From Phycisphaerae bacterium (lineage in GTDB: Bacteria > Planctomycetota > Phycisphaerae > UBA1845): a stretch of 64,000 bases of DNA. Numbering within the stretch: the stretch's first letter is position 1; each line of letters opens with the position of its first letter. The position numbers and the translations under genes were made by a program. The DNA is taken from positions 248,001 through 312,000 of the forward strand of contig JAJDDY010000023.1 in the NCBI GenBank assembly GCA_029260075.1. The letters are read 5' to 3'. The notes under the pieces were generated by a model. That model was not told the DNA's origin. It saw only the letters and a program-made list of their open reading frames with translations, and did no database searches. Below are positions 2,450 through 60,289 of the stretch, piece by piece.

Positions 2450-2898
2450 CCGCAAGCGAAGCTTCTGCCGAAGCTGATCGAACTCACCCCGCTGCCGAAC
2501 GCGTAGAAGGCCTCCAAACACGTTGACTCCCGCTCCCATCTTCGCGCCTAATGGCCCGTTGAAAAAGTGTGGCACCGGCTTCCAGCCGGTGATCCAATAG
2601 CGATTTCAGCCTCGTAGTTGGAACGCAGCCCATCGTCGCGGACGGGCTTGAGGCACCGTGCTTGAATACAAGCCCTTTTCAATAGTTTGCTAATTCCACA
2701 CGATCGCACAAGGGTGTTCTCGCTGGTCGTATTTCTGAGCAAAGGTAACACCAACATACGGGGCGTCCCGGACGCACCAGGAGACGTCGATCGCGTCCAG
2801 ATGGTCGACAATCGCAATCTGCAGTATGATACCGCCGGTAGAGCGATCGTCGGCTGGAGGGTGAACCGGCCGCAACGTGCGATCGTGTGGCGGAGGCA
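2450..2898. other. Intergenic region with one CACCGGCT-type hairpin repeat
   Basis: No convincing gene. A hairpin with arms AGCTTC/GAAGCT at 2460-2475 follows the preceding stop but has no T-run. One copy of the genome's CACCGGCT hairpin repeat lies at 2567-2595. The rest presumably carries the promoter of the sigma factor gene; I could not pick a clear hexamer pair. Confidence 0.5.
2567..2595 (+). repeat. CACCGGCT-TCC-AGCCGGTG hairpin repeat
   Basis: A perfect 8-bp stem closes on a TCC loop, preceded by GTGTGG and followed by ATCC. The same unit recurs in both orientations at 6569, 7705, 9345, 9507, 9725, 15128, 18387, 32531, 42505, 47515 and 48716, always between genes. Confidence 0.9.
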
Positions 2899-3798: not shown

Positions 3799-3827
3799 CA
3801 TTCGTTGGGCCGTCTACGTAGGGTGCT

Positions 3828-3851
3828 GGTGCGTGAATCCCTTCTCGCACC
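3828..3851 (+). repeat. GTGCG-type covarying hairpin repeat
   Basis: The unit is GGTGCG, T, GAA, TCCC, TTC, T, CGCACC. Two stem blocks are separated by a T-T mismatch and closed by a 4-base loop. This is the first of about a dozen copies of the family in the window. Confidence 0.85.
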
Positions 3852-6301: not shown

Positions 6302-6819
6302 ATGTGCTTCCTCTTCCTTCAGGACGCGGACCGACACGACCACTGAGACAATTGTACGCTCCGTAAGCCGGGCAAACAAGGTCCAACATGACGGACTTGC
6401 CGGTTTCGACCTACCTGACGGCCCGGAATCCGTGATGTTATTGAACAAACCGCGCATACGCTCCGGCGTTACCCCGGATATCGTCATTTCACGCGAGCCG
6501 GTTGACGGAATCCTGTCCGTACCGGTCACGACGACGCACGACTCGCCGAGGAGTCGGTCCAAAAATCTTGGCACCGGTTCCAGCCGGTGATCCGTTGCTA
6601 TGCTGTGCCGCTCGTGCTGCTGTGCCGTGAATCCTTTCTCGGCACCCGCTCGTGCGTGAATCCCTTCTCGCGCACACCGCTCGTGCGTGAATCCTTTCTC
6701 GCACGCACACCTGAGCGCTTGCCCAAGCGACCCTCTTACCATGTAATGTCGCGCGCCGTTGATGATATCCTGACACGTGGGCAGCGCCCACGCAGCCACG
6801 CATCCCAGGAGCCGTTGGA
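6302..6819. other. Divergent intergenic region dense in hairpin repeats
   Basis: The promoter regions of the CAP lipoprotein (leftward) and mqnD (rightward) lie here. The right half holds one CACCGG-type hairpin and three GTGCG/GTGCCG-type hairpins. No gene is evident; the open frames that cross it are repeat-derived. Confidence 0.6.
6569..6704 (+). repeat. Cluster of one CACCGG hairpin and three GTGC-type hairpins
   Basis: A CACCGG repeat with a one-base-shorter arm is at 6569-6593. A GTGCCG-stem hairpin lies at 6622-6645, a GTGCG-stem hairpin with an extra CG in its right arm at 6652-6675, and a GTGCG-stem hairpin at 6683-6704. All share the inner GAA-TCCY-TTC block. Stem bases differ but stay paired. 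Confidence 0.88.
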
Positions 6820-7665
6820 ATGAGCCAACCGAGACAACTAACGCTGGGTCATAGCCCCGACCCCGATGACGCCTTCATGTTCTACGCCCTCGCCAAGAAC
6901 AAGATCGACACGCGCGGGTGGGCGTTCGAACACGTGCTGCAAGATATTCAAACGCTCAACGACCGGGCGCTGCGTGGCGAGTTGGACATCACCGCCATCA
7001 GCATCCACGCCTATCCGTTCGTGGCCGAGCGGTATGCGTTGACCGCGTGCGGAAGCAGCATGGGCGACGGCTATGGTCCGCTCGTCGTGGCCCGCGAGGA
7101 GATGACCATCGACGACCTGCGCGGCAAAACCATCGCCGTGCCGGGAGAGATGACCACGGCATTCCTCGCACTGAATCTGATACTCGGGCGCCGAGCATTC
7201 GAGCACAAGGTCGTCATGTTCGACGAAATTCTTACCCACGTGGCCGAAAGTCGCGCCGACGCCGGACTGATCATCCACGAAGGACAACTGACCTATCGCG
7301 ATCACGGCCTGTCGTCGATCATCGACCTCGGCGACTGGTGGAAGCAGACGACGGATCTACCGTTGCCCTTAGGCGGCAACTGCATCCGCCGCGACTTGGG
7401 CCCCGAAGCGATGGTCGAGGTGACGGCAATATTGAAAGAGAGCATCGAGTACAGCCTCGCCCACCGCAGCGACGCCGTCGAGTACGCACTTCAATACGCA
7501 AGAGACATGGGCCACGACCTGGCCGACCGGTTCGTGGGCATGTACGTCAACAAATGGACCGTCGACTACGGCGTCGTAGGACGCCGTGCGGTGCGAGAGC
7601 TACTCAAGCGCGGGCACGAAATCGGCATGATGCCGGAAGTCAAAGAGATCGACTTCATCGGATAG
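6820..7665 (+). CDS. mqnD: 1,4-dihydroxy-6-naphthoate synthase (menaquinone futalosine pathway)
   Basis: MqnD converts cyclic dehypoxanthine futalosine to 1,4-dihydroxy-6-naphthoate in the chorismate-to-menaquinone futalosine route. The 281-residue protein shows the periplasmic-binding-protein-like fold of the family. It has an N-terminal SPDPDDAFMFYAL motif (SPCPND in many members), DITAISIHAYPFVAERY, GDGYGPLVV, IAVPGEMTTAFLALNL and ADAGLIIHEGQ, the last containing the catalytic-type His. Family length is about 275-285 residues. An AGGAG at 6807-6811 is spaced eight bases from the ATG. The other mqn genes are not in the window. Its presence implies menaquinone respiration without the classical men pathway. 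Confidence 0.92.
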   Translation: MSQPRQLTLGHSPDPDDAFMFYALAKNKIDTRGWAFEHVLQDIQTLNDRALRGELDITAISIHAYPFVAERYALTACGSSMGDGYGPLVVAREEMTIDDLRGKTIAVPGEMTTAFLALNLILGRRAFEHKVVMFDEILTHVAESRADAGLIIHEGQLTYRDHGLSSIIDLGDWWKQTTDLPLPLGGNCIRRDLGPEAMVEVTAILKESIEYSLAHRSDAVEYALQYARDMGHDLADRFVGMYVNKWTVDYGVVGRRAVRELLKRGHEIGMMPEVKEIDFIG

Positions 7666-7704
7666 ACGCCTGTTAACTTCGGCGGAAAGGCGCCTGTTGA
7701 ACAA

Positions 7705-7880
7705 GTGTGGCACCGGCTTCCAGCCGGTGATCCGTTGCTGTGCTGTGTCGTGAATCCTTTCTCGACACATGGACGGAGGTAAGCTGTGCCGTGAATCCTT
7801 TCTCGGCACGTGGATGAAGGTGCGAGAAGGGATTCACGCACCAGCTGACGCACCAGCAGGGTCTAGGGATTCACGCACCA
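7705..7880 (+). repeat. Cluster of hairpin repeats, both orientations, downstream of mqnD
   Basis: A CACCGGCT hairpin lies at 7705-7733. Then come a GTGTCG-stem hairpin at 7745-7768, a GTGCCG-stem hairpin at 7786-7809, an inverted GGTGCG-stem copy at 7819-7842 and a half copy at about 7863-7880. This cluster supplies the clearest compensatory pair change, CG/CG to TC/GA in the stem. The whole 262-base gap between mqnD and the next gene is repeat-derived. Confidence 0.9.
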
Positions 7881-7927
7881 GCGAGGGTTGCATGCGACTT
7901 TCCGCTCGGGCATGGCACCCGCCTGTC

Positions 7928-8167: not shown

Positions 8168-9282
8168 TCTTCGGGTACGACCAGTGCCTTGACGATGCGT
8201 CCCTCAGCCACAGCATCCAATGCGTCGTCGACGTCACCAAGTGCGAACCGTTCGAGCTTGACGTTCGACCAGAGTGGGGCGGCTGATGGTGAGCGCAACA
8301 TCTCGAGCCCACGGTGGAAGTGCGAATAGTCCGACCCCCAGCATCCGCGAACGTCGAGGTGTTTCTTGTTGATGTCGAGGTGCGGGTTCAGTTCGATCTC
8401 GCCGTGGTCCGTGTATTGACCCACAATGACGACCCGCCCGGCGTCGCGCGTGAAGTGCATGGCTGAGCGAACCGCGATCGGTGCGCCGGTGCATTCGATG
8501 GTCACGTCTACCCCGCGCCCTTCGTTGTGTTCATGAACCCAGTCGACCTGCGCCGAGACGTCGGACGATGTGAAATTGAGCACGTCGCTCGCGCCCATCT
8601 GTCGCGCCACATCAAGCCGACCGTCAGGCGCACCAATGCACAGCACACGCGAAGCACCGCTCAGTTGCGCGAACGCGACGGCGGAAAGTCCAACCGGTCC
8701 GCAACCGAGCACCAAGACCGTATCGGCCAGTTTGATTTCGGCGCGATCCACGGCGTGGAGCGACGTGGGCAGCGAACAGCCGCCGGCCATGTATAACTCG
8801 TTTGATACGTCGCCCATGCGAATGCACTGCACACCCGGCTTGATGTAAATGTATTGCGACCAACCGCCGGTGAGGCCGTCGGCTACGCCATAGGTAATGC
8901 CGTAGACCTTGCGATGAGGGCATCGCGTCGAAGCCCTCGCCACCATGCAATACCAACAGGCGTTGCACGTGCGATGGACATCCAAGAACGTGACGCGGTC
9001 GCCCGGAGCGAACGGGCATCCGTACACGTCGTGAATCGTCCCACGTATTTCTTCGAGCACGCCGACCGATACGTGGCCGGGGATGATGGGGTAGGGGACT
9101 CCGGACAATAGTCCGGCGCGGAGGTGTACGTCCGTACCGCACACTTCGCTGAGTTCAACTTTCAAGAGCGCCGAGTCTGGTTCCAATTCCGGAATCGGCA
9201 GCTCGCGCAGCTCACACCGCACCGCACGACCTGGGGCCGGCGGTTGAGGGATGATTGCGGTGAGTGCGTGGCGTTTGGACAT
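8164..9282 (-). CDS. Zinc-binding alcohol dehydrogenase family protein (MDR superfamily)
   Basis: A medium-chain dehydrogenase/reductase of 372 residues. The catalytic zinc site is marked by EVCGTDVH near residue 48 and by PGHVSVG, where most relatives have GHE. The structural-zinc lobe is CNACWYCMVARASTRC (C-x2-C-x2-C-x7-C). The Rossmann nucleotide site is VLVLGCGPVGLSA. The substrate cannot be told; the family covers alcohols, polyols and sugar derivatives. ATG 9282 is used; a TTG three codons upstream is possible. It overlaps the glutaredoxin-like gene downstream, giving a two-gene operon. The missing Glu after the zinc His is a small departure from the consensus. Confidence 0.88.
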   Translation of the reverse strand: MSKRHALTAIIPQPPAPGRAVRCELRELPIPELEPDSALLKVELSEVCGTDVHLRAGLLSGVPYPIIPGHVSVGVLEEIRGTIHDVYGCPFAPGDRVTFLDVHRTCNACWYCMVARASTRCPHRKVYGITYGVADGLTGGWSQYIYIKPGVQCIRMGDVSNELYMAGGCSLPTSLHAVDRAEIKLADTVLVLGCGPVGLSAVAFAQLSGASRVLCIGAPDGRLDVARQMGASDVLNFTSSDVSAQVDWVHEHNEGRGVDVTIECTGAPIAVRSAMHFTRDAGRVVIVGQYTDHGEIELNPHLDINKKHLDVRGCWGSDYSHFHRGLEMLRSPSAAPLWSNVKLERFALGDVDDALDAVAEGRIVKALVVPEE

Positions 9283-9344: not shown

Positions 9345-9752
9345 GTGTGGCACCGGCTTCCAGTCGCTGGTGCGTGAATCCTTTCTCGCACCTTTGTTCG
9401 CGAATACCCGTTCCCATGCATCGTCGTAGCCGCCGGACGCAGGATGGGAATCCTGCATGAGCGGAGTGACGAAATAGGAATCTCGTCACAGCGGTTTCTT
9501 CAACAGGTGTGGCACCGGCTTCCAGCCGGTGGTCCCATAACGATTTCTTCCCTATAACGTTGCGAATCCCATCAGCACCGACGTTTGCTGGTGCGTGAAT
9601 CCTTTCTCGCACCTTCGTTCGCGAATACGCCTTCCCATGAATCGCCGAAGCCGCCGGATGCAGGATGGGAATCCTGCATGAGCGGAGTGACGAGATAGGA
9701 ATCTCGTCACAGCGGCCCGTCAATGGATCACCGGCTGGAAGCCGGTGCCACA
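9345..9752. repeat. Repeat island with a 129-base direct duplication
   Basis: Copies at 9366-9494 and 9587-9715 are each 129 bases and nearly identical. Each starts with a GGTGCG-type hairpin (9369-9392 and 9590-9613) and ends in a segment reading GGATGGGAATCCTGCATGAG and onwards to TCGTCACAGCGG. CACCGGCT hairpins sit before (9345-9368, degenerate), between (9507-9535) and after, inverted (9725-9752). This fills the gap between aspS and the zinc dehydrogenase, which are on the same strand. No gene is present. Confidence 0.88.
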
Positions 9753-14506: not shown

Positions 14507-14612
14507 GTGCTGTGTCAGGGCTAGAGCGAGAGGTTGACCGAGCCGCGACGGTGAGGGAGCGATTTCCCCACTTGAAACCGGACCGCTTCCTTACGGTCGC
14601 GGCTCTACAAGA
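14507..14612. repeat. MITE-like palindromic element, copy 1
   Basis: The outer end GTGCTGTGTCAG and the paired arms GAGCCGCGAC...GAGGGAGCG and CGCTTCCTTACGGTCGCGGCTC identify the element. It begins nine bases after the stop of the preceding gene and could act as a transcription terminator. It is a shortened copy compared with 15193, 29046 and 51426. Confidence 0.75.
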
Positions 14613-14752: not shown

Positions 14753-15421
14753 ATGTATTCATCCGTACCACGCGATACTCGCCGACCGCCGGCGAGCAAA
14801 TGAAACGATTCCTGTTCCGCTGTCATTCGCCCGCCGGAGATGCGACCGGACGAAGTGAGCGGCATGCGATGAGTGGTTTCTTGCTCCCCGCATTGTGGAG
14901 CATACCGAAGTGAGCGCGACGTGTGAAGCGCCCTCGCAGCTTCGTTCGCCGGAAGGCGACGCGGATGGTCGTGAATCCCACTTGTCGTTCAAGATCAGTG
15001 GCACATGCGTAAGATCACGAGCGAAGATGCAACCTCAGCCCGTGGAACAAGGGCGGCATTCACGCCCGCCGCCGCGAACCCGCCGACGATAACGGGTGGC
15101 GTCCGTCAAGCGGGGGAAACCGCAATTGGATCAAGGGTTGGAAGCCGGCGCCACATTCTGCTAATGGGCGGCTTCGACTCCTTCCCCGCTACTGCTCTGT
15201 CACCGCTAGAATGACGGGTTTACCGAGCCGCGACCGTGAGGGAGCGGACCCTTGTTAACCTTTAATCAAAGCGTCAAGACGCTCTCTAGCTGTCGGCGCC
15301 GCATCAAACGCACCCGTAACTTTAGGTGTAACAAAGCACCAGGTGCGAGAGCCGACGCGCGGTGCACGCACAAGGCACGTTGGCCGATTGCAGCGTACAC
15401 CGCGTATCGACGCCGTCGCAA
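14753..15421. other. Intergenic region between tRNA-Met and dnaK
   Basis: It holds a degenerate inverted CACCGG-type repeat at 15128-15155 and a full MITE-like element at 15193-15338. I see no gene in the rest. Confidence 0.5.
15193..15338. repeat. MITE-like palindromic element, copy 2 (about 146 bases)
   Basis: Ends are TGCTCTGTCACCGCTAGAA and an inverted ...GTGTAACAAAGCA, preceded by TA. The inside carries GAGCCGCGACCGTGAGGGA and a GCGTCAAGACGCTCTCTAG hairpin. It closely matches the element at 51426-51572 over its whole length, including ATGACGGGTTTACCGAGCC. Confidence 0.85.
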
Positions 15422-18141: not shown

Positions 18142-18264
18142 GTGTGAGAAGACGTATCCGAGGGTTTGCGATGAACCGAGCCGCGCCCGTGAGGAAGCGG
18201 TTTTCGCCGGCGAGCCGGGATCGCTTTCTCATGGGCGCGGCTCGGTAAGAGGCTTCTTGCACAC
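18142..18264. repeat. MITE-like palindromic element, variant with GTGTG-AGAAG ends
   Basis: The core arms are GAACCGAGCCGCGCCCGTGA and an inverted TCATGGGCGCGGCTCGG; the outer ends are GTGTGAGAAG and CTTCTTGCACAC. The left half (about 18161-18220) is the nearest match in the window to the in-frame segment of the mnmE-like gene at 57921-57977. Confidence 0.8.
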
Positions 18265-43928: not shown

Positions 43929-46900
43929 ATGAGTGACAATTTGGTTCTGGAAAAGACGTACGATCCCAAGGGCGTCGAGCCAGAAATCTATGCGACTTGG
44001 GAACGGTCCGGCGCCTTCCGGTCGACGCCGGATGGCAGCCCGCACGAGAAGACGTTTACCGTGGTCATCCCGCCGCCCAACGTCACCGGTGCGCTGCATC
44101 TCGGTCACGCGCTCAACAACACGCTGCAAGACATTCTGGTCCGCTACCATCGAATGCGCGGATTCAACACCCTGTGGCAGCCGGGCACCGACCACGCGGG
44201 CATCGCCACGCAAGCGGTCGTCGAGCGGCGCATCCGCGAGCAAGAGGGCAAGAACCGGCACGAAATCGGTCGCGAACAGCTCGTCGCCCGAATCTGGAAA
44301 TGGAAAGACGACTACGAGAAGCGCATCATCGGTCAGCTTAAGCTCATGGGCTGCTCGTGCGATTGGGACCGCATCCGCTTCACGCTCGACGAAGGTCTGG
44401 CCGGCGCCGTCCGCACGCAGTTCTTCAATCTGTTCAAGGATGGTCTCATTTTTCGCGGCAAGCGGTTGGTCAACTGGGACACGCAACTACAGACTGCCGT
44501 CGCCGACGACGAGGTCTATCACGAAACCGTCAAGGGGCACTTCTGGCACTTCAAGTATCCGGTGATCGATCCGAAACCGGGTGAGCCGGAACACGTGATC
44601 ATCGCCACGACGAGGCCGGAGACGATGCTGGCTGACACAGCCGTGGCGGTGCATCCCGACCCCGAGGCGTTTTTCGACAAGCAGGAGCAGGAACTCAAGA
44701 CTCAGCTAGGTCGACTTTCCGATCGGTCCGGCAGAGAAGCCGTCGAGCTTACCGCCAAGCTTGACGTGCTGGCCGCGCGCCGTGAGTCGACCTTGGGTGG
44801 ATTGGTCAAACTACGCGACATGGCCAACGACGGCCGCATGGTGACGCTGCCGCTTATGAATCGCCCGATTCGATTGATCTGCGACGAGTGGGCCGATCCG
44901 ACCAAGGGCAGCGGCTGCGTGAAGATCACTCCGGCGCATGATCCGAACGACTACGAAGTCGGCGTGCGTCACGGGCTGGCGATGATCAACGTGCTTACTG
45001 CGGCCGGCAAGATCGCCCCGGTCGTCGAACCCAACGGTGAAACAAATTCCCATAGCAAGGACTACGAGGGTCTGGCCTTTTCCACCGCCGGGCGTGACAA
45101 GGTCGTGGCCGACTTGGATGCGCTTGGGTTGCTCCACGAAGTCGAGGATCGTGATACCGAGATCGGGTTTAGCGATCGCAGCAAAGTGCGCATCGAGCCG
45201 TATCTTTCGGACCAATGGTTCGTGAGGACTGAGGACATAGGGACGGAGGGACAGAGGGACGGAGGGACGAAGGGGGTGACGCTCGGTGATGGTACGCGGG
45301 CGCCGGGTTTGGCTCAGGCGGCGATGGATGCCGTCGACGACGGACGAGTTAAGATTTTTCCACCGCGCTATGCGAAGTCGTATCTCGACTGGCTTGGCGA
45401 GAAACGTGACTGGTGCATTTCGCGGCAATTGTGGTGGGGGCATCGGATTCCGGTTTGGACTGACAGGTTTCTTTCGGGCCATGTGACGGCCGGGTACCCA
45501 CTTAATGGAGAAGCGCTCCTTAAGGAATGGGGCGTCAAGTGTTACCCATCCGACACTATCTATGCACCAAATCTTGATGGAAGTTCGCCGAAGTCCGGTC
45601 CGGAAGAGATGCGACTACTTCACTATTGCGTCGCTGATAAACTCACCGTCGAACAGGTGTCGATCCTTACTGAGCAGGCGGGATGGCGGCGGGACGAAGA
45701 CGTCCTCGACACCTGGTTCTCCTCCGCCTTGTGGCCGTTCAGCACGCTTGGTTGGCCGGAGAAAACTGAGCACTTGGACCAATACTATCCCGGTTCCGTG
45801 CTGTGTACATCGCGCGATATCATCACGAATTGGGTGGCTCGCATGGTGATGTTCGGGTTGTACGCGATGGGTCGCATCCCGTTCGACCATGTGTACATCC
45901 ACCCGAAGATTCTCGATGGGCGCGGCGAGACCATGAGCAAGTCGAAGGGCAACGGCGTCGACCCGGTGGACATCATCCACTCGCACGGCACGGACGCCCT
46001 GCGCTATTCGATGGCCGACATGACCACCGAGACGCAGGATATTCGCATGCCGATCGAATACGTCTGCCCGCACTGCGGCAAGCTCACCGATCAGACGCTG
46101 GCCATCAAACAAGAAACGCAGGCCAGGAAATCGCGAGGCGAAAAGCTCGTCGGCAAACTGCAACCGATCGACTGCCACCGAATCAAGTGCGCGAACAAAC
46201 AGTGCGGCAAAGAGTTCGCGTCACAGTGGGCCGACGATTCGCTCAAGAAGGAACTCGGTCTCGGTCGCGAAACGTCGGACAAGTTCGACATTGGCCGCAA
46301 CTTCTGCAACAAGCTTTGGAACGCCTGCCGCTTCGCGTTCATGAACCTCGAAGGCGCGCCGTGCCACAAGCTCGACGTCGCGTCCCTGGCGCCGGAGGAT
46401 CGATGGATTCTGTCGATGCTTTCGCAAACCGTTCGCCGCTACCATGCGTGCCTGAAAGAGTACCGATTCTCCGCATCGGTTCGTGAGTTACGCGAATTCT
46501 TCTGGGACAGTTTGTGCGATTGGTACATCGAGCTGACCAAGCCGCGTCTCACCGGTGAGTCGCAGCAGGGCGACGACGGGGTTACGGCGAACGCGAACAC
46601 CTCCGGCGCGACGGCCCGGCAGGTACTTGCGTTTTGCATCGACCAAGTGCTACGCCTTTGGCACCCTACGATGCCGTTCATGACCGAGCGCTTGTGGCAA
46701 CAGCTCAATCAGGTCGCCCCCGATCGAGGCCTGCCCGGCGTGGCTGACCTTGCGCCTGCGCCGCAGTTGGTCACCGCAGCCTTCCCGCCGGTCGAAGGAT
46801 ATTCCGAGTTTGAAGACGCGGCGATCGAGAAGGTGTTCAGTGGGCTGCAAAGTGTCGTGCGGGCTGTTCGCGAACTCCGATCGCAGTGCGACGTCTCGCC

Positions 46901-47291: not shown

Positions 47292-47745
47292 TGCAACGCT
47301 CAAGTTGGAAGTGAGGGAGCCGAAACGGTCGTGCCAGCGATGACGTAGGTGCGAGAAGGGATTCACGCACCAGCGGCTTAGGGGGGAGGTAGCCCGTTGC
47401 AGGGGTGGCTATGTGCTGTGCCGTGAATCCTTTCTCGGCACTTCGGGTTGACGTGCAAGAAGGGATTCACGCACCAGCGGGAAGGGATTCGCGCACGATC
47501 AGCTTGTTGAACAGGTGTGGCACCGGCTTCCAGCCGGCGATCCATTAGCGATTTCCGCCTCTTGCGGGCCACTCAACCCTCTGGTTTCACGCACAGCCTC
47601 GCCCGTTCCACGGCGGATTCATTCACCCGCACGATGCAGGCTGGCCGATATCTCGGTACGGGTGTTCGCGCGCGGCGAGACGTCGCCGGACGTTCGCCGC
47701 GACCGGGCCGAGTTTGTTGGAACCGCCAATCGAGGTGACGCATCG
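47292..47745. other. Repeat-rich intergenic region after valS
   Basis: The gap holds an inverted GTGCG hairpin (47348-47371), a GTGCCG hairpin (47418-47441), an inverted copy with one G-T wobble (47453-47474), a half copy near 47481-47496 and a CACCGGCT hairpin (47515-47543). No gene is supported. Confidence 0.6.
47348..47543. repeat. Cluster of GTGC-type and CACCGGCT hairpin repeats
   Basis: This is the fourth large cluster. As in the clusters at 6.6, 7.7 and 9.4 kb, a CACCGGCT unit borders several GTGC-type hairpins. The two families therefore travel together. Confidence 0.88.
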
Positions 47746-48662: not shown

Positions 48663-48715
48663 CGCGTTGCGTTCATCTGACTTGCGTTCATCCGAAATTG
48701 TGTTCATCCGCTATT

Positions 48716-48744
48716 GTGTGGCACCGGCTTCCAGCCGGTGATCC
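48716..48744 (+). repeat. CACCGGCT hairpin repeat
   Basis: A perfect GTGTGGCACCGGCTTCC unit followed by AGCCGGTGATCC, between tRNA-Leu and aroC. It follows a short tandem of GTTCATC-containing units (GTTCATCTGA, GTTCATCCGA, GTTCATCCGC) at about 48671-48712. Confidence 0.88.
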
Positions 48745-51425: not shown

Positions 51426-51572
51426 GTGCTTTGTCACAGCTAGAATGACGGGTTTACCGAGCCGCGACCGTGAGGGAGCGGACCCTAGTTAAGCTTCAAT
51501 CACAGCGTCAAGACGCTCTCTAGTTGTCGGCGCCAGATCGAGCCACCCGTATCTCTACGTGTGACAGAGCAC
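51426..51572. repeat. MITE-like palindromic element, copy 5 (147 bases, flanked by TA)
   Basis: The ends are GTGCTTTGTCACAGC and the inverted GTGTGACAGAGCAC. TA stands on both sides (51424-51425 and 51573-51574). The inside equals the element at 15193 in GAGCCGCGACCGTGAGGGA and the AGCGTCAAGACGCTCTCTAG hairpin. Confidence 0.88.
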
Positions 51573-55269: not shown

Positions 55270-55295
55270 ACAGAGCGCGTCTTGGAAGCCTCTTT

Positions 55296-55364
55296 CGGAG
55301 CCGCGCCCGTGAGGAAGCGGTCCGGCTTCGAGTGCGAAGCCGCTCAGTTACGGCGGCGGCTCGG
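55296..55364. repeat. MITE core palindrome, copy 8
   Basis: GAGCCGCGCCCGTGAGGAAG and CAGTTACGGCGGCGGCTCGG form a long hairpin 27 bases past the stop of the preceding gene. The outer TGCTTTGTCAC-type ends are absent, so this is a core-only copy that could terminate transcription. Confidence 0.8.
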
Positions 55365-60155: not shown

Positions 60156-60289
60156 GAGGTTCGCACCTATACCGAGCCTCGCCCGTAAAGTAGCGGGCGT
60201 TTGAAAACCGCTCGTGACAGCTCGAACACGCTCCCTTACGGTCGCGGATCGGATCGACAAGACCCGTCACTTGCGTCGTGACAAACCGT
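60156..60289. repeat. MITE-like palindromic element, copy 7, at the rpmA stop
   Basis: The right end ACCCGTCACTTGCGTCGTGA then CAAAC matches the family end. The core arms GAGCCTCGCCCGTAAAGTAG and CGGTCGCGGATCGGA are worn. A TA forms part of the rpmA TAA stop at its right edge and another TA precedes the left end (60154-60155). Confidence 0.78.

What the first reader, a model, noticed from the sequence alone, without database searches (positions are those of the whole stretch)
6622..7842. Hairpin repeats with compensatory stem changes (GTGCG / GTGCCG / GTGTCG family)
About twelve copies (3828, 6622, 6652, 6683, 7745, 7786, 7819 inverted, 9369, 9590, 47348 inverted, 47418, 47453 inverted) share a fixed inner block T-GAA-TCCY-TTC-T. 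Their outer stems differ yet stay paired: GTGCG with CGCAC, GTGCCG with CGGCAC, GTGTCG with CGACAC. One copy has a G-T wobble. Such covariation argues for selection on a folded RNA or single-stranded DNA hairpin and not only for copy-paste history. A transposase of the REP/RAYT type, or a structured regulatory RNA or terminator, could explain it.
Basis: partly seen in the sequence, partly recalled or inferred. Interest (0 to 1): 0.72.

Follow-up and report, generated by a model that had tools for sequence, protein, structure and literature searches.

The report
GCT-tagged REP hairpins with partner transposase
The repeats are about 290 copies of a 27-base DNA hairpin scattered between the genes of a planctomycete-type bacterium; they belong with one single-strand transposase gene that sits among them and very probably spreads them, like the REP/RAYT systems of E. 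coli but with a different recognition tag (GCT instead of GTAG).

Summary
All 12 copies lie where stated, and the 12-nt core occurs 289 times in the 4.92-Mb genome (143 +, 146 -; reversed-pattern control 0). The unit is longer than reported: 27 nt, 5'-GCT + 6-bp stem + T-GAA-TCCY-TTC-T + 6-bp stem. GCT is present in 196 of 207 copies read, only on the 5' side. Chosen by core alone, 164/207 copies have six Watson-Crick outer pairs (shuffled 3' halves: mean 54, max 74). The covariation is real but sits in ten paired stem classes, five of them large; unpaired stems are mostly singletons. Hence a hairpin seems needed to spread, and copies decay afterwards.

Mechanism: a REP/RAYT system. A 182-aa RAYT (NCBIfam REP_Tyr_transpos, 116 bits, cut-off 80; best fold match E. 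coli TnpA_REP 4er8, Z 15.4) is flanked by these hairpins. Orthologues (58-65%) in nine other genomes are flanked by the same GCT-hairpin; all ten carry the repeat, against 25 of 90 genomes without the RAYT. The guide is GCT, not GTAG: a new variant of a known kind. Terminator and cis-RNA rivals fit poorly. Activity is untested.

Side finding: two sister RAYTs sit in frame inside single-copy purH and alaS, a pattern recurring across relatives.

The parts
3825..3851 (+). REP unit: GCT + stem GGTGCG/CGCACC + core TGAATCCCTTCT
6619..6645 (+). REP unit: GCT + stem GTGCCG/CGGCAC
6648..6674 (+). REP unit, imperfect outer stem CGTGCG/CGCGCA
6679..6705 (+). REP unit: GCT + stem CGTGCG/CGCACG
7742..7768 (+). 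REP unit: GCT + stem GTGTCG/CGACAC
7783..7809 (+). REP unit: GCT + stem GTGCCG/CGGCAC; with 7819-7845 (-) forms an inverted pair, GCT ends outward
7819..7845 (-). REP unit: GCT + stem GGTGCG/CGCACC (inverted)
9366..9392 (+). REP unit: GCT + stem GGTGCG/CGCACC; start of a 129-nt block repeated 94% at 9587-9715
9466..9492 (-). variant REP unit: GCT + stem GTGACG/CGTCAC + core AGATTCCTATTT (inner stem GAT/ATT)
9587..9613 (+). REP unit: GCT + stem GGTGCG/CGCACC
9687..9713 (-). variant REP unit: GCT + stem GTGACG/CGTCAC + core AGATTCCTATCT (inner stem GAT/ATC)
47348..47374 (-). REP unit: GCT + stem GGTGCG/CGCACC
47415..47441 (+). REP unit: GCT + stem GTGCCG/CGGCAC
47452..47478 (-). REP unit, imperfect outer stem GGTGCG/TGCACG (contains the G-T wobble)

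Best explanation
The repeats are REP elements, that is, short non-autonomous mobile hairpins. They are very probably recognised as folded single-stranded DNA and spread by one cognate RAYT (an HUH/Y1 single-strand transposase) encoded elsewhere in the same genome (contig C86, L041:8091-8636). Shown here: the 27-nt unit with a one-sided 5' GCT tag, its pairing, its copy number, its intergenic location, the RAYT gene flanked by the same hairpins, and the same pairing of gene and hairpin in nine other genomes. Inferred from the E. coli and IS200/IS605 systems: the RAYT binds the hairpin, reads GCT (perhaps YGCT) as the guide that positions cleavage, cuts the single strand with its tyrosine, and copies or inserts the unit, probably at exposed single-stranded DNA. 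Stem sequence is free to change if pairing is kept; the GCT tag and the TCCY loop are the parts that do not change.
For: 289 exact cores, strand-balanced, reversed control 0. Unit boundaries are sharp at -9 and +6, with GCT in 196/207 and only on the 5' side. Outer pairing is complete in 164/207 copies chosen by core alone, against a shuffled mean of 54 and maximum of 74 and 0-1 when the 3' half is slid by 1-6 nt or back by 1-3. The inner stem also swaps compensatorily, GAA/TTC to GAT/ATC (about 20 copies). 169 of 177 copies are intergenic. RAYT P0001: NF047646 at 116 bits with cut-off 80; PDB sequence hit 4er8 at 1.3e-6; model pLDDT 91.7 with best fold match 4er8 (Foldseek 2e-8; Z 15.4). REP units lie on both sides of the gene. 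Orthologues at 58-65% identity in nine other genomes are all flanked by GCT-hairpins with the same loop. REP counts in the ten RAYT genomes are 4-269; 65 of 90 genomes without the RAYT have none (Fisher p = 1e-5, Mann-Whitney p = 1.5e-8). Hairpin and gene differ together by lineage: the relatives' core mostly begins with A (paired A-T), this genome's with T (T-T mismatch).
Against: No transposition, binding or cleavage was observed. 25 of 90 genomes without a detected orthologue carry the repeat (up to 40 copies), which needs loss of the gene, missing assembly or another transposase in trans. The genome tests are not corrected for kinship. Most neighbouring copies are direct repeats (59 of 84 close pairs) and 45 of 93 clusters are single copies, so the inverted-doublet REPIN is not the main form. 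The guide GCT is inferred from conservation and position only. 82 of the 289 copies were not read.
Confidence: 0.9

Rival explanations
1. Structured RNA in transcripts: a cis-acting mRNA hairpin (3'-end stabiliser, attenuator) or a small RNA family under selection in each copy.
For: Compensatory stem changes; hairpin location between genes. REPs in other bacteria can have such secondary roles (PMC8049555).
Against: Both strands equally frequent (143/146); the asymmetric unit shows no clear orientation relative to tandem genes (44/32); broken stems are common among singletons; no Rfam match; the presence of the hairpin follows a DNA transposase.
Confidence: 0.05
2. Intrinsic transcription terminators.
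For: Hairpins lie downstream of many genes, including 30 of 117 scored copies between convergent genes.
Against: TTTT within 10 nt after the hairpin in 1 of 207 copies; a conserved 5' GCT is not a terminator feature; copies occur in clusters and between divergent genes.
Confidence: 0.02
3. Passive duplication without a transposase: copies spread by recombination, slippage or segmental duplication.
For: Some copies clearly arose by local duplication (129-nt block 94% identical at 9366-9494 and 9587-9715; direct arrays with 39-44 nt spacing).
Against: Dispersed copies share exactly 27 nt and nothing on either side, and the copy number goes with the RAYT.
Confidence: 0.03

Closest known systems
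REP / TnpA_REP (RAYT) REPtron of E. coli and other Proteobacteria
   Same: Short imperfect palindrome with a one-sided 5' tag at the hairpin foot, hundreds of intergenic copies, one RAYT gene flanked by the units, RAYT with HUH + single Tyr and the 4er8 fold; internal mismatch in the stem as in E. coli REPs (PMC8266576).
   Different: Tag is GCT (or YGCT), not GTAG; unit 27 nt with TCCY loop and a T-T mismatch; the RAYT is only 23-25% identical to the E. coli protein.
TnpA_Y1 subclass 2.6 / RAYT group 5 (PMC6006769)
   Same: Protein fits the published marks: NH[LIV]H, WQ, YIH.NP, about 180 aa, about 80 residues from HUH to Tyr, SS motif in the tail; nearest non-planctomycete relatives are largely Bacteroidota; REPs described as atypical and lacking GT[AG]G.
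   Different: Subclass reported mostly from Bacteroidetes; the REPs there were found by manual inspection and no GCT guide was seen in the passages read. No tree with the published subclasses was built here.
Class 3 TnpA_Y1 of Planctomycetes (CnGA foot, PMC6006769)
   Same: Also a planctomycete REP-like system; this genome has two class-3-like proteins (L040, and the one inside alaS).
   Different: Different Y motif (Y....Q) and different hairpins; not the preferred partner of the GCT repeats.
REPINs (two inverted REPs, PMC8049555)
   Same: 13 of 18 inverted pairs with GCT ends outward are tightly spaced (31-34 nt between cores).
   Different: Direct neighbours and single units are more common than inverted doublets.

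Membership tests
REP element (broad sense) | Short (20-40 nt) palindromic repeat in high copy number, mostly extragenic | tested here: met
   27 nt, 289 exact cores, 169/177 intergenic by a crude gene caller
REP element (broad sense) | One-sided conserved tag just 5' of the hairpin foot | tested here: met
   GCT in 196/207; nothing comparable on the 3' side
REP element (broad sense) | Same units flank a RAYT gene in the genome | tested here: met
   L041 and nine orthologues in other genomes
Canonical GTAG- (or CGTC-) tagged REP | GTAG/GTGG or CGTC tetranucleotide at the foot | tested here: not met
   Tag is CGCT 86, TGCT 64, AGCT 31, GGCT 15 of 207
RAYT / TnpA_REP | Passes the curated family model; HUH motif and single Tyr conserved | tested here: met
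   NF047646 at 116 bits, cut-off 80; H62, H64, Y142 invariant in 41 sequences
RAYT / TnpA_REP | TnpA_REP fold | tested here: met
   4er8 best, Z 15.4, rmsd 2.2 over 132 residues
RAYT / TnpA_REP | Cleaves and joins its cognate single-stranded REP | not testable with these tools
   needs biochemistry
TnpA_Y1 subclass 2.6 / RAYT group 5 | NH[LIV]H, WQ, YIH[QN]NP, about 179 aa, long HUH-Y distance, SS tail motif | tested here: inconclusive
   NHVH, WQ, YIHENP, 182 aa, 80 residues from H62 to Y142, S162-S163 (table read); no tree with published members
REPIN | Units chiefly occur as inverted doublets | tested here: inconclusive
   25 inverted against 59 direct close pairs; 45 of 93 clusters single; 82 of 289 copies were not read
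Intrinsic terminator | T-run directly after the hairpin | tested here: not met
   1 of 207

The most novel reading that the evidence does not exclude
The GCT-tagged hairpins belong to a RAYT lineage with its own guide code, kept across Phycisphaerae and possibly wider, and sister REP/RAYT systems of the same genomes persist by living in frame inside single-copy essential genes (purH, alaS, and in relatives ileS and valS), with REP-coded peptides as linkers. That would be an intein-like way for a domesticated transposase to avoid loss.
Probability: 0.5. Interest if true: 0.78.

Novelty: new variant of a known kind. Interest (0 to 1): 0.5.

Why it matters
It gives a clearly defined guide (GCT) and cognate hairpin for a RAYT that fits a group whose REPs were described in the literature only as atypical and lacking GT[AG]G. 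That makes the guide-recognition question testable with matched pairs: ten orthologous RAYTs at about 60% identity whose hairpins share tag and loop and differ mainly at one known position (A-T pair or T-T mismatch). It also shows where stem covariation comes from in mobile hairpins: paired classes multiply, broken ones stay as singletons. The in-frame RAYTs in purH and alaS, found while tracing the partner gene, may be the larger surprise.

Tried and rejected
A first pattern with a wrong core spacing gave one chance hit. Rfam gave only two tRNAs. Other Y1 genes considered as partner: L038 (IS200-like, no repeat within 1.5 kb) and L039 (RAYT-like, no repeat within 1.5 kb) were rejected; L040 has three copies nearby, but it is class-3-like and related to the alaS-embedded RAYT, so it is not preferred. 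A first structure prediction from ten close sequences was poor (pLDDT 49); the deeper alignment gave 91.7. A systematic second hairpin downstream of each unit was tested and is only occasional (13 of 207). Paper searches for this REP family in Phycisphaerae or for RAYTs inside essential genes found nothing in the held open-access library; that is not proof that neither has been described.

Full report
What is there. The window is 64 kb of contig C16 of a 4.92-Mb draft genome in 93 contigs. The nearest named relatives by the partner gene are Phycisphaerae/Phycisphaerales MAGs; the genome itself is unnamed. Genome-wide the exact core is found 143 times on one strand and 146 on the other, with none for the pattern read backwards.

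Anatomy. I read 207 distinct copies with flanks. Conservation starts sharply with GCT at positions -9 to -7 (196 of 207), continues through a 6-nt left stem, the 12-nt core and a 6-nt right stem, and then stops; at -10 there is a pyrimidine preference (158 of 207), so the foot may be read as YGCT. The unit is thus 27 nt: GCT, six pairs (N4CG/CGN4), a T-T mismatch, three pairs GAA/TTC, and a loop TCCY. The tag is on the 5' side only. A search with GCT and a perfect 6-bp stem, blind to the core, recovers the same family at a spacing of exactly 12 nt (204 hits, against 6-9 for each other spacing tried). It also shows a sub-family with inner stem GAT/ATC, about 20 copies, which is a compensatory swap of the third inner pair. 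Two such copies lie in the window at 9466-9492 and 9687-9713.

Covariation. Copies were chosen by the core alone, so the outer stem is an unbiased test. All six pairs are Watson-Crick in 164 of 207 copies; dealing the 3' halves out at random gives a mean of 54 and a maximum of 74 in 2000 shuffles, and shuffling each column gives a mean of 19. Sliding the partner by 1-6 nt one way or 1-3 the other leaves 0 or 1. The changes are concentrated in ten fully paired stem classes of sizes 77, 46, 17, 12, 6, 2, 1, 1, 1, 1, whereas the 33 unpaired classes have at most 4 members. By distinct class, unpaired stems outnumber paired ones; by copies, paired ones dominate. I read this as selection at the moment of spreading: only hairpins multiply, and copies decay afterwards. 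In 65 copies from other genomes 55 stems are fully paired and 64 carry GCT.

Location. With a crude self-trained gene caller, 169 of 177 copies are intergenic, including all 12 in the window. Close neighbours are mostly direct (59 of 84, often 39-44 nt apart); 18 pairs face each other with GCT outward, 13 of them 31-34 nt apart, which is the REPIN layout; 45 of 93 clusters are single units. Strand relative to tandem genes is 44 to 32. TTTT after the hairpin occurs once in 207, which argues against terminators.

Partner gene. Six Y1 transposase genes match PF01797 in the genome. The one at C86:223090-223635 (L041:8091-8636, 182 aa, PNHVH and YIHENP) has REP units just upstream and downstream. 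It passes NCBIfam's REP-associated tyrosine transposase model (116 bits, cut-off 80); its only clear PDB sequence hit is E. coli TnpA_REP 4er8; and its model (pLDDT 91.7) matches 4er8 best (Foldseek 2e-8; Z 15.4 over 132 residues). H62, H64, W121 and Y142 are invariant over 41 relatives.

Coupling. Among 100 genomes (this one and 99 of its family and order) the RAYT at 58-65% identity is found in ten, with a wide gap to the next full-length relatives at about 37% or less. All ten have the hairpin on the RAYT flanks, with the GCT tag and TCCY loop; in most of them core position 1 is A, making an A-T pair where this genome has T-T. Counting GCTN4CGWGAATCCYTTCTCG, the ten have 4 to 269 copies (median 37); of the 90 others 65 have none (Fisher p = 1e-5, Mann-Whitney p = 1.5e-8). 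Kinship is not corrected for, but the ten belong to ten genera in three families of the order. More distant relatives of the RAYT (about 32-48%; Bacteroidota, Chloroflexota, Methylobacter) are also often flanked by hairpins with their own stems and loops. Several of these again have GCT at the foot (L164, L165, L190, L192), while one Chloroflexota group has GTAG with a CTCT loop. So the guide seems to change within this RAYT clade; I did not test this on a tree.

How it most likely works. From the E. coli and IS200/IS605 work (PMC8266576, PMC6006769), the RAYT would bind the folded single strand, recognise loop, mismatch and 5' tag, use the tag as a guide for the cut, and carry the unit to a new place. 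Shown here: anatomy, pairing, copy number, partner gene and coupling. Inferred: binding, guide role, cutting and spreading. The protein fits the published marks of subclass 2.6 (group 5), whose REPs were reported as atypical and without GT[AG]G. I do not file it there, because no tree was made.

Sister systems in the same window and genome. Two other palindromic families run through the window: TGGCACCGGCTTCCAGCCGGTG (189 exact copies in the genome) and one around CCGAGCCGCGACCGTGAGGGAGCGG. Tracing their partner genes gave something unexpected. One RAYT lies in frame inside purH (786-aa frame, both halves of PurH present; it is the genome's only PF01808 gene), flanked by coded copies of the first family (CGTGFQPV, HRLEAGA). 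Another, class-3-like, lies in frame inside alaS (1321-aa frame, the only alaS), flanked by what read as coded copies of the second family. Relatives of the first (about 40-55%) sit in large open frames in many genomes: purH in about eleven by sequence (two of them checked by Pfam), and ileS and an MmeI-like methylase in others. Relatives of the second (52-72%) sit in alaS at what look like three different places, and once in valS. Conserved open frames across genera argue against assembly error. Whether the product stays fused is unknown. I found no report of this in the held literature.

Verdict. The finding is a real REP/RAYT system with a non-canonical GCT guide: a new variant of a known kind, of moderate interest in itself, and a door to a more unusual phenomenon.

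Noticed in passing
L042:6859-9219 (+), G000:C88: RAYT domain in frame inside the only purH of the genome (786-aa frame), flanked by REP-coded peptides CGTGFQPV and HRLEAGA; related RAYTs lie in frame in purH of about eleven other genomes, and in ileS or an MmeI-like methylase in others.
   Followed up: partly
L043:6652-10617 (+), G000:C54: Class-3-like RAYT in frame inside the only alaS of the genome (1321-aa frame), flanked by coded PSRDRKEA / LPYGRGS repeats; relatives (52-72%) in alaS at apparently three sites (L245, L246, L248; L249, L255; L252) and once in valS (L251).
   Followed up: partly
window 2563-2595, 7701-7733, 9503-9535, 47511-47543, 48712-48744 and others: Second palindromic family TGTGGCACCGGCTTCCAGCCGGTGATCC; 189 exact copies of its 22-nt heart in the genome, probably partnered by the purH-embedded RAYT.
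   Followed up: partly
window 14534-14562, 15219-15247, 18172-18200, 51453-51481, 55292-55320, 60168-60196: Third repeat family around ACCGAGCCGCGACCGTGAGGGAGCGG, probably partnered by the alaS-embedded RAYT.
   Followed up: partly
window 9366-9494 and 9587-9715: 129-nt direct duplication, 94% identical, carrying a REP unit and a variant unit.
   Followed up: no
L041 around 7905-7925 and 8654-8675; L127, L129, L131 near the RAYT: Second hairpin types with the same TCCY loop but no GCT tag (GCGGATTCCTATCCGC, CGCGGGAATCCCTTCCCGCG) sit beside REP units near RAYT genes; role unknown.
   Followed up: partly
L182, L188, L191, L195, L207 and L164, L190, L192: Within the wider RAYT clade the hairpin foot varies: GTAG with CTCT loop in one Chloroflexota group, GCT in others.
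   Followed up: partly
window 45223-45290: Short tandem array of an 8-nt unit (AGGGACGG-like).
   Followed up: no
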